Positions 48,504 through 50,105 of a stretch of 64,000 nucleotides of DNA are shown here, in pieces. How positions within the stretch are numbered: position 1 is the stretch's first letter; the number at the start of each line of letters is the position of its first letter. The notes under the pieces are model-generated. The model saw only the letters and a program-made list of their open reading frames with translations, searched no databases and was not told the DNA's origin. The DNA comes from Bremia lactucae (lineage: Eukaryota; Oomycota; Peronosporomycetes; Peronosporales; Peronosporaceae): the NCBI RefSeq assembly GCF_004359215.1, contig NC_090619.1, positions 4,015,434 to 4,079,433 on the forward strand. Direction: 5' to 3'. The position numbers and the translations under genes were made by a program.

Positions 48504-50105
48504 ATGGATAACAAGTCCATGCGGTGTGCGAATTGTGCGGAGCCTTCGGCTGCGGTTCTTGCAGCCGCGGGTGACGCAATATTGTCTCTTGCGGCAGACG
48601 TTCTGTCTGCCGTAGTATTGTTTTCTTCCGCAACTCTAACTGTTGCGGGTGCACGTGGTGGGTCCCATCGTGAATGCAACCCCTCTTTGGAGGTCGACTA
48701 TGAGTGCGAGTCGGACAAAATGGCCGACTCGGGGAGAACAGAACAGTCGCCTGATTATTGTCAGGCGGCTGACTATGAGCCTTCGAATGAGGAGGCTCAA
48801 GCGGATAGACGTGCCGGCAGCATTCGCTATAGCATGTTTGGTTCCGACGATGAGGATGATTCCTCATCGCCAGCACCGTCTCCCGTGCCGTCACCCGCAC
48901 TTATCCCGGTGCGCGGTGATGAGGATGGCGAAAGCCATCGTAATAAAAGTTCTTTTGGCACCTCTTTTTCAGTAAGTACCACTCAGGGGATCGTAGACAC
49001 CAAAATATCTCGTCTTGCCCCTGAGGGAAGAAGCTTGCCCGAACAATTAATTAATAGCTTGTCTGGATAGACTACTCCTCACAATAATATCCTTTTAAAT
49101 TGCGACAAAGCTACATAACCTTGATCCCAGCGCGAAGAACTTTCGCGCTGAGAATTGTTTTTATCTCGATGCTTTTCTTAAGCATCGGTGGTATAGTGGC
49201 AGCAACAAGCGATATATAAGCTTGTTTATGTAAGCCTGGAACGCGTTTATTCGCAATGTTAAAGACATTGTACGCGAAGTCTGGCTTCGAAGACTTAAGC
49301 GTTTCGCGAAACGAACTTCAACCGGTGCAAGGTATAAATTGCATCGGTTGTCTCGTGAGGCAGGAATTCCATGCCTCACGTAGGGTGATCCCTGTCCGTG
49401 TTGTGTCGACAACATGAAACGAGTGAAAGGGGATGTTTATTTCCTTTCTTCGCCCTCGGGAAGGGCTCGCATCTATATCGAAATGCACGATGCAATTGAC
49501 GTTTTGCAATCGATTTGCAAGCGCCAAGGGCGCGTCTTTTCCGATGGGTCTTCTGATCCATCGGATGGGTCTCGTCATGCTGACGGAAGAGGCCATCAAC
49601 ATCAACAACCAGCTGGGACTGAGGCTCCCAGCTGTCATCCGAAGGTGGATAACCGCGCTAGCGAACAAGAAACCTCGTTCGCTGTCTTTTCACATCACGG
49701 TGGTTTTGAATACGCACCAAAAGAAAACGTTTACCACCGTGGGAATCCACCAATGGTTGTGGCGAAGGAGCGAAAATTAGATTCGACCCATGTGTCGGAT
49801 CTAGAGTCGAAAATCGACACACTCGATCACATCCTCCATAAATTGGAGGAGGGACTTGATCACGAGTGCGGTAAGCGTCGCTCGTTGGAGCAGACGGTGC
49901 AGACTCACTATATCGACCGGTTAGAAGACCGTTCGAAGGTGCGTACTCCATGTTGGAGTATGAACGGATTTATCACGCCCTTCGTGATGAGCTGACTTCC
50001 GCTCATCGCGGTTTCAAGGATCTTCAGACCCGGCATGAGAATCTCCAGATTCAACATGAGAATCTGGTTCGTGACCACACGAATCTTTTAGGGATTCTTG
50101 AATAG
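48504..50105 (+). pseudogene. Antisense ORF of family A
   Basis: Starts ATG 118 bp past the 3' LTR; first frame 188 aa (48504-49070): Ala-rich start (MDNKSMRCANC), SLEVDYECESDKMADS, and an acidic Ser/Pro stretch FGSDDEDDSSSPAPSPVPSP. After a degraded gap comes the conserved block KRFAKRTSTGARYKLHRLSR, EAGIPCL, Cys cluster CPCC (49290-49410). A 193-aa frame (49414-49995) passes opposite the chromodomain and ends in a coiled coil VSDLESKIDTLDHILHKLEE. After a frameshift it continues FKDLQTRHENLQIQHENLVR to the stop at 50103-50105. No known family. Conservation with B across both frames supports past protein coding. Confidence 0.68.

What the first reader, a model, noticed from the sequence alone, without database searches (positions are those of the whole stretch)
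48504..50105. Antisense protein frame between integrase and 3' LTR in every Gypsy family here
Families A (48504-50105), B (15011-16480, 24990-26555, 43832-45293), C (18643-20251) and D (2366-3644, 5557-6877, 12863-13417, 46030-46264) all carry a frame opposite to gag-pol. It begins about 75-145 bp inside the 3' LTR and ends at the integrase tail. Layout is the same: start region, acidic Ser/Pro part (A, C, D), coiled-coil end. Extra antisense ORFs at this place are described for some plant Ty3/Gypsy elements (Ogre/Tat, RIRE2 type). I do not know of a described oomycete case, and the parallel in four LTR families suggests an ancient fourth gene with its own promoter near the 3' LTR.
Basis: partly seen in the sequence, partly recalled or inferred. 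Interest (0 to 1): 0.88.

Follow-up and report, generated by a model that had tools for sequence, protein, structure and literature searches.

The report
Backwards gene overlapping retrotransposon's chromodomain
Common jumping genes in a downy-mildew-like genome carry an extra protein gene written backwards, partly on the other strand of their own chromatin-binding domain, and it has been kept working by selection; such genes were known in plants and a fungus, and no oomycete report turned up here.

Summary
The antisense frame is a real, selected gene in three of the four families. In A, B and D its dN/dS falls from 0.8-1.2 between close copies to 0.3-0.6 between distant ones, and it has the lowest pN/pS of six frames in antisense-only DNA. 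Relatives of the A and D proteins are deposited from downy mildews as uncharacterised or 'RxLR effector candidate'. There the chromodomain faces a predicted disordered stretch of the antisense protein, and its coiled coil faces a sense linker without measurable constraint. A and B proteins are homologous. D has a similar layout but no detectable homology. C could not be tested for selection. Most likely it encodes a dimerising nuclear accessory protein that regulates the element; promoter, RNA and function are unshown. It is a new variant of the plant and fungal antisense ORFs. In passing: A and B elements carry a dense array of short hairpins.

The parts
47943..48387 (-). family A 3' LTR; the antisense gene starts 117 bp inside the element from it
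   Evidence: LTR-LTR alignment
48504..49085 (+). family A antisense gene, N-terminal part (acidic, Ser/Pro rich, predicted disordered)
   Evidence: tblastn with P0001 residues 1-191 from 48519; the ATG at 48504 is supported by similar starts in P0006, P0032, P0122 and P0124
49099..49938 (+). family A antisense gene, helical core with Cys motif, linker facing the chromodomain, start of coiled coil
   Evidence: tblastn with P0001 residues 197-480; model
49935..50171 (+). family A antisense gene, end of coiled coil and basic NLS-like tail (NLS by eye)
   Evidence: tblastn with P0001 residues 480-558
49580..49735 (-). approximate position of the sense chromodomain of A opposite the antisense gene (broken in this copy)
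   Evidence: mapped from L041, where Chromo PF00385 E 5.2e-14 lies opposite P0001 358-409
14825..15997 (-). family B antisense gene, core to C-terminus (broken)
   Evidence: tblastn with P0001 166-559, E 1.8e-37
25315..25765 (-). family B antisense gene, second copy, two fragments
   Evidence: tblastn with P0001, E 3.6e-15 and 6.4e-6
43853..44626 (-). family B antisense gene, third copy, fragment
   Evidence: tblastn with P0001 224-505, E 6.9e-22
44090..44452 (+). family B sense ORF with chromodomain opposite the antisense gene
   Evidence: Chromo PF00385 E 2.5e-9
5557..6818 (+). family D antisense gene (broken)
   Evidence: tblastn with P0136 1-350 and 358-432, E 1.6e-83
2366..3641 (+). family D antisense gene, second copy (broken)
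   Evidence: tblastn with P0136
12863..13414 (+). family D antisense gene, truncated copy
   Evidence: tblastn with P0136 1-192
46055..46261 (+). family D antisense gene, C-terminal fragment only
   Evidence: tblastn with P0136 380-451
18643..20251 (+). family C antisense frames; recurrent in the genome, selection not tested
   Evidence: weak similarity to the D core

Best explanation
Families A, B and D are chromodomain-bearing Ty3/Gypsy retrotransposons that carry an accessory protein gene on the strand opposite gag-pol, starting just inside the 3' LTR and running back over the chromodomain and integrase linker (shown for A; for B and D a chromodomain opposite the gene was seen in single copies). 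In A the shared DNA is partitioned: the chromodomain faces a disordered segment of the antisense protein, and the antisense coiled coil faces a sense linker without measurable constraint (constraint shown; disorder and coil predicted). The protein has an acidic disordered tail, a compact helical core, a coiled coil and a basic NLS-like stretch. Inferred: it is made from an antisense transcript started in or near the 3' LTR, dimerises through the coiled coil, enters the nucleus and regulates transcription or chromatin state of the element, in the manner proposed for the plant antisense ORF proteins and, by layout only, like HTLV-1 HBZ.
For: Constraint in A (47 copies): changes shared by 4 or more copies in the overlap fall at antisense codon positions 1/2/3 = 20/29/56 against singletons 195/149/160, and antisense position 3 is sense position 2 (chi-square p 2.7e-5, and 4.5e-5 with hairpin-stem columns removed). 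Class tests: linker antisense p 3.8e-5, sense p 0.85; antisense-only DNA p 4.4e-5; SH3-only DNA sense p 0.0099, dummy antisense p 0.82. dN/dS falls with divergence in A, B and D. Six-frame controls. Relatives from Peronospora matthiolae, P. effusa and Hyaloperonospora arabidopsidis: 40 and 110 listed proteins (overlapping lists) for A-type, 8 for D-type, one of them named, from P. matthiolae. Models and the staggering.
Against: No RNA, promoter or protein evidence. No family above a Pfam cut-off in the antisense proteins scanned one by one; only scattered coiled-coil-type matches, best E 2.5e-4 in one protein. No Foldseek match with E <= 0.001. So the nuclear/regulatory role rests on layout. 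In the chromodomain stretch itself antisense constraint is only a trend (p 0.10) and sense pN/pS is lower (0.64 against 0.73). In the N-terminal part the codon-position signal is weak (28/34/47 summed over two windows). For SH3-only DNA the simple position test is not significant for the sense frame (14/21/11, p 0.21). The copies were found with the antisense protein, which favours copies conserved in that frame. D dN/dS rises to 0.55 in the 11 most distant pairs. Model confidence is low overall (pTM 0.41 and 0.29). No window copy examined has the whole gene open.
Confidence: 0.6

Rival explanations
1. Selected antisense gene as above, but its product acts in particle assembly, nuclear import of the pre-integration complex or target choice together with the chromodomain integrase, rather than in transcription.
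For: Basic tail (NLS-like by eye) and coiled coil; PMC7264820 raises pre-integration-complex and accessory roles for plant antisense ORF proteins (parts 1 and 2 of 3 read).
Against: No particle or integrase-binding motif found; nothing here separates it from the regulatory reading.
Confidence: 0.22
2. The antisense frame is a by-product of sense coding constraint and of the palindrome-rich sequence; no protein is made.
For: The chromodomain stretch is constrained mainly through the sense frame, and hairpins make both strands alike.
Against: Constraint in DNA beyond the sense stop, and in the linker where the sense frame is unconstrained; signal remains with stem columns masked and stems are spread evenly over codon positions, 106/105/102; proteins of about 500-590 aa deposited from other species.
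Confidence: 0.04
3. The antisense RNA, not the protein, is the functional product (for example a dsRNA-based brake on the element).
For: PMC7264820 discusses this for plant elements.
Against: Codon-level constraint in the antisense frame is not predicted by an RNA-only role.
Confidence: 0.08
4. The gene is a host gene or another mobile element captured in reverse orientation, separately by A/B and by D.
For: A/B and D proteins are not detectably homologous.
Against: No relative with a functional name that I credit or a Pfam family was listed; similar layout. Genomes of other oomycetes could not be searched.
Confidence: 0.18

Closest known systems
Antisense additional ORFs between pol and 3' LTR of plant Ty3/Gypsy elements (Grande gene23, RIRE2, Retand ORF4/TRP28, PvRetro13); PMC7264820 (parts 1 and 2 of 3 read) and PMC11963269 (passages and Discussion read)
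   Same: Antisense to gag-pol next to the 3' LTR, present in most copies, no clear relatives outside mobile elements, some nuclear; Grande gene23 reported to be transcribed from a promoter upstream of it
   Different: Plant cases are described between pol and the LTR; here about 0.7 kb overlaps pol, over a chromodomain. No TRP28 (PF04195) match. Different host group and protein families.
brtn of Boty elements in Botrytis cinerea (Zhao et al. 2011; seen only as a reference and passages in PMC8365987 and a mention in PMC7264820)
   Same: Additional antisense gene in a non-plant Gypsy element
   Different: Sequence not compared here; the original paper was not read.
Chronos elements of oomycetes (PMC5348765, section 5 and passages read)
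   Same: Ty3/Gypsy elements of Peronosporales with a chromodomain after integrase
   Different: Chronos has a dual RNase H; the one broken B copy examined appears to have one, followed by integrase (by eye). 'Antisense' occurs 0 times in that paper's main text.
HTLV-1 HBZ (recalled; mentioned in PMC11963269)
   Same: Antisense gene near the 3' LTR; acidic start, basic stretch, coiled-coil end (recalled for HBZ)
   Different: No bZIP Pfam match; HBZ itself was not compared; layout analogy only.

Membership tests
Antisense aORF (aORF-3R) of LTR retrotransposons | ORF antisense to gag-pol beside the 3' LTR | tested here: met
   but its last ~0.7 kb overlaps pol in A, unlike the cases described in the papers read
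Antisense aORF (aORF-3R) of LTR retrotransposons | Present in many copies and conserved as protein | tested here: met
   150 or 151 matches listed per family, capped; dN/dS and six-frame tests in A, B, D; share of all elements that carry it not measured
Antisense aORF (aORF-3R) of LTR retrotransposons | Antisense transcript from its own promoter | not testable with these tools
   No RNA data; promoter consensus scan at chance level
Retand TRP28 proteins | PF04195 domain | tested here: not met
   No PF04195 match at E up to 0.5 in 10 A-type database proteins scanned one by one, nor in 8 D-type members, nor at E up to 1 in 3 A-type locus frames
Chromodomain Ty3/Gypsy elements | RT, RNase H, SH3-type integrase end, chromodomain | tested here: met
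   RVT_1 and RT_RNaseH in A and B, SH3_Tf2-1 in A and D, Chromo in A, B and D. No Pfam integrase-core match in the broken ORFs scanned; C not assigned
Chronos | Dual RNase H (gRH plus aRNH) before integrase | tested here: inconclusive
   One broken B copy: one RT_RNaseH, then integrase by eye; A, C and D not resolved because broken
HBZ-like retroviral antisense proteins | bZIP domain | tested here: not met
   No bZIP Pfam match; a coiled coil is predicted
HBZ-like retroviral antisense proteins | Represses sense transcription from the 5' LTR | not testable with these tools
   Needs an experiment

The most novel reading that the evidence does not exclude
All four families descend from an ancient oomycete chromodomain retrotransposon that already carried a fourth gene on the opposite strand, so that a nuclear regulator and a chromatin-targeting domain have co-evolved on the same DNA for the age of the downy mildews, with folded and disordered segments alternating between the strands.
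Probability: 0.3. Interest if true: 0.78.

Novelty: new variant of a known kind. Interest (0 to 1): 0.62.

Why it matters
It extends antisense accessory genes from plant and fungal elements to oomycetes and gives a measurable antisense overlap in a eukaryotic mobile element: along ~0.7 kb the constraint passes from one strand to the other. The gene recurs in very large repeat families, so its product could matter for how these repeats are controlled. It also matters for annotation: relatives are deposited as uncharacterised proteins in Peronospora and as 'RxLR effector candidate' in Hyaloperonospora, where they are most likely pieces of transposons.

Full report
What was checked. The window lies in a 116 Mb, 220-contig genome without a name. 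Size fits the 115 Mb Bremia lactucae assembly described in PMC6570648 (passages read), but I did not verify the species. Family A is a minus-strand element with LTRs 47943-48387 and 55091-55539, lying inside a D element. No window copy examined has the whole gene open.

The overlap that was missed. In less broken A copies the sense frame continues past the integrase core through an SH3_Tf2-1 domain (PF24626), a linker of 140 aa and a chromodomain (PF00385, E 5.2e-14 in L041), and the antisense frame lies opposite. In L041 about 700 bp are open on both strands (sense 1610-2743 minus, antisense 1138-2307 plus). A B and a D copy also have sense chromodomains. In C I see chromodomain-like pieces at 19652-20000, but Pfam did not call them.

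Selection in A. With 47 copies placed against L041, changes shared by 4 or more copies (mostly made while elements were active) were compared with singletons (mostly decay after insertion). In the overlap, shared changes fall at antisense codon positions 1/2/3 = 20/29/56, singletons 195/149/160. Antisense position 3 is sense position 2, so sense constraint cannot produce this. By class: in the linker the antisense frame is constrained (p 3.8e-5) and the sense frame is not (p 0.85); in the chromodomain part the sense frame is (p 6.5e-5) and antisense shows a trend (p 0.10); in antisense-only DNA antisense is (p 4.4e-5); in SH3-only DNA sense is (p 0.0099) and a dummy antisense frame is not (p 0.82). 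Six-frame pN/pS agrees: antisense 0.53 (core), 0.50 (linker; sense 1.20), 0.65 (N-terminus); chromodomain sense 0.64, antisense 0.73; SH3 sense 0.57. The mirror frame that shares wobble positions also reads low (0.57-0.78 where antisense is constrained), as expected. Weaker results: N-terminal codon positions 28/34/47; SH3-only position test p 0.21; stops in the antisense-only stretch 92 against 119-577 in other frames.

Selection in B and D. dN/dS of the antisense frame falls with divergence: A core 0.82 (29 pairs) to 0.49 (474 pairs), then 0.54 (153 pairs); A N-terminus 1.16 (11 pairs) to 0.60 (122 pairs); B, 27 distinct copies, 1.00 (10 pairs) to 0.41 (54 pairs); D 0.82 (3 pairs) to 0.34 (21 pairs), but 0.55 in the 11 most distant pairs. 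This is the pattern of selection in active elements and neutrality after insertion. Six-frame controls: D 0.45 with 1 stop in 12 copies (other frames 0.94-1.10, mirror 0.52; 65-215 stops); B 0.51 with 67 stops (others 0.89-0.97, mirror 0.58; 126-241 stops). Copies without an in-frame stop over the queried part: A core 22 of 46, A N-terminus 17 of 41, B 7 of 27, D 11 of 12. Caveat: copies were found with the antisense protein.

Relatives. The A-type query found 40 proteins and a profile found 110 (most of these from Peronospora matthiolae), with P. effusa, Hyaloperonospora arabidopsidis and unnamed ENA entries; one cluster has 524 members. None bears a precomputed Pfam domain. Names are 'uncharacterized', 'unnamed', 'Core-binding (CB) domain-containing' and 'RxLR effector candidate'. 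The D-type query found 8, one named, from P. matthiolae. No Phytophthora entry was listed, but only 7997 candidates were scored and 7994, so absence means little. A and B cores are 46% identical over 149 aligned columns.

Same place in other genera? Eleven of 12 A-type proteins fit a chromodomain motif at 10 of 12 positions (2-9 of 100 shuffles do as well), P0124 does not; 4 of 5 D-type do. The ten A-type ones in alignment A4 share one column, the four D-type ones one column. They are homologous, so not independent, and shuffled proteins also prefer register 2 (269 of 400); I count this as modest support. P0010 (P. matthiolae) reads past the usual end and fits the SH3 end at 12 of 12 (0 of 100 shuffles). 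Directly, register 2 holds in 14 of 14 distinct A copies, 1 of 2 B and 1 of 2 D.

Structure. P0001 with 51 sequences (pTM 0.41): residues to about 170 mostly below pLDDT 50, helical core 177-345, low again at 351-416, helix 429-536. The chromodomain faces residues 358-409 and the sense linker faces 409-549, so ordered parts alternate between strands; this would explain how the overlap is tolerated (inference). P0136 (D type) with 9 sequences (pTM 0.29): core 86-254 at moderate confidence, helix 375-431. No convincing fold match. A and D show no profile homology.

Mechanism. Shown: coding and selection (A, B, D); overlap and alternating constraint (A). Predicted: disorder, core, coiled coil. 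Inferred: antisense transcription from the 3' LTR side, nuclear entry (NLS-like tails are by eye), dimerisation, regulation of the element. I hold the regulatory reading ahead of an assembly or import role because of the acidic tail, basic stretch and coiled coil and the view in the plant literature, but no result here separates them.

Comparison with what is known. [quoted passage not shown] Zhao et al. 2011 seen only as a reference in PMC8365987). Searches of the held open-access library for an oomycete case (listings only, partly capped) showed none; the oomycete survey PMC5348765 does not use the word antisense in its main text. The present genes differ by the overlap with the chromodomain, and lack TRP28. 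Hence: new variant of a known kind.

By-finding: hairpin array. Short perfect hairpins (stem 6 or more, loop up to 12) exceed dinucleotide shuffles about 6-fold in A (74 against 12.1) and 4-6-fold in B (29, 41 and 38 against 5.2, 10.5 and 9.3; the last two stretches are partly near-identical copies); D 42 against 17.9 and 15 against 6.8, C 14 against 7.5; other window stretches 23 against 15.6, 11 against 14.2 and, at the host-gene end, 11 against 11.4. Of 47 distinct A copies, 45 were examined and show 20-40 against 3-7 expected. With stems of 7 or more, A has 49 at loops 2-14 against 2-11 for four longer loop ranges and B 26 against 5-10; D shows no excess by this count (9 against 4-13). Stem columns diverge from L041 less (0.059) than loops (0.144) or the rest (0.107). 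Covariation is weak: 57 compensatory cells against 33.9 (sd 4.4; shuffles hold about 11% fewer cells), but non-pairing double changes are raised too (39 against 16.6), and 16 of 21 distinct events are in one copy. RNA folding z of one 900-nt A stretch is -13.8 and -12.4 on the two strands, +0.7 for a host-gene stretch (20 shuffles each). Wobble-compatible changes show no strand preference (66 and 61 shared events), so whether the hairpins act in RNA or DNA, or arise by template switching, is open. Two searches listed no report (5 of 5, 10 of 16 listed).

Noticed in passing
48500-53280 (A), 14968-17138, 23152-27174, 41900-45500 (B): Dense array of short perfect hairpins (stem 7-12, loop 2-14, about one per 65 bp in L041) through pol and the antisense gene; stems diverge less than loops; RNA folding z about -13 on both strands of a 900-nt A stretch; stems evenly placed over codon positions. 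Function or mutational origin unknown.
   Followed up: partly
50905-51210: In the A copy the RNase H stretch is inverted relative to the rest of pol (RT_RNaseH match on the plus strand in a minus-strand element).
   Followed up: no
1774-13417: D elements appear as a head-to-tail array in which LTRs near 1774-2253, 5093-5438 and 12345-12831 may be shared between neighbours.
   Followed up: no
23152-25522 and 41994-44355: Two B stretches are 97.5% identical over about 2.4 kb, far closer than other B copies in the window: a recent duplication or insertion.
   Followed up: no
53070-53281 and 53575-53786: 212 bp direct repeat, 97% identical, on both sides of a 293-base run of N.
   Followed up: no
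database proteins P0035, P0038, P0131, P0006: Relatives of the antisense protein deposited for Hyaloperonospora arabidopsidis as 'RxLR effector candidate' (first three) and 'Core-binding (CB) domain-containing' (P0006); probably transposon pieces misnamed.
   Followed up: partly
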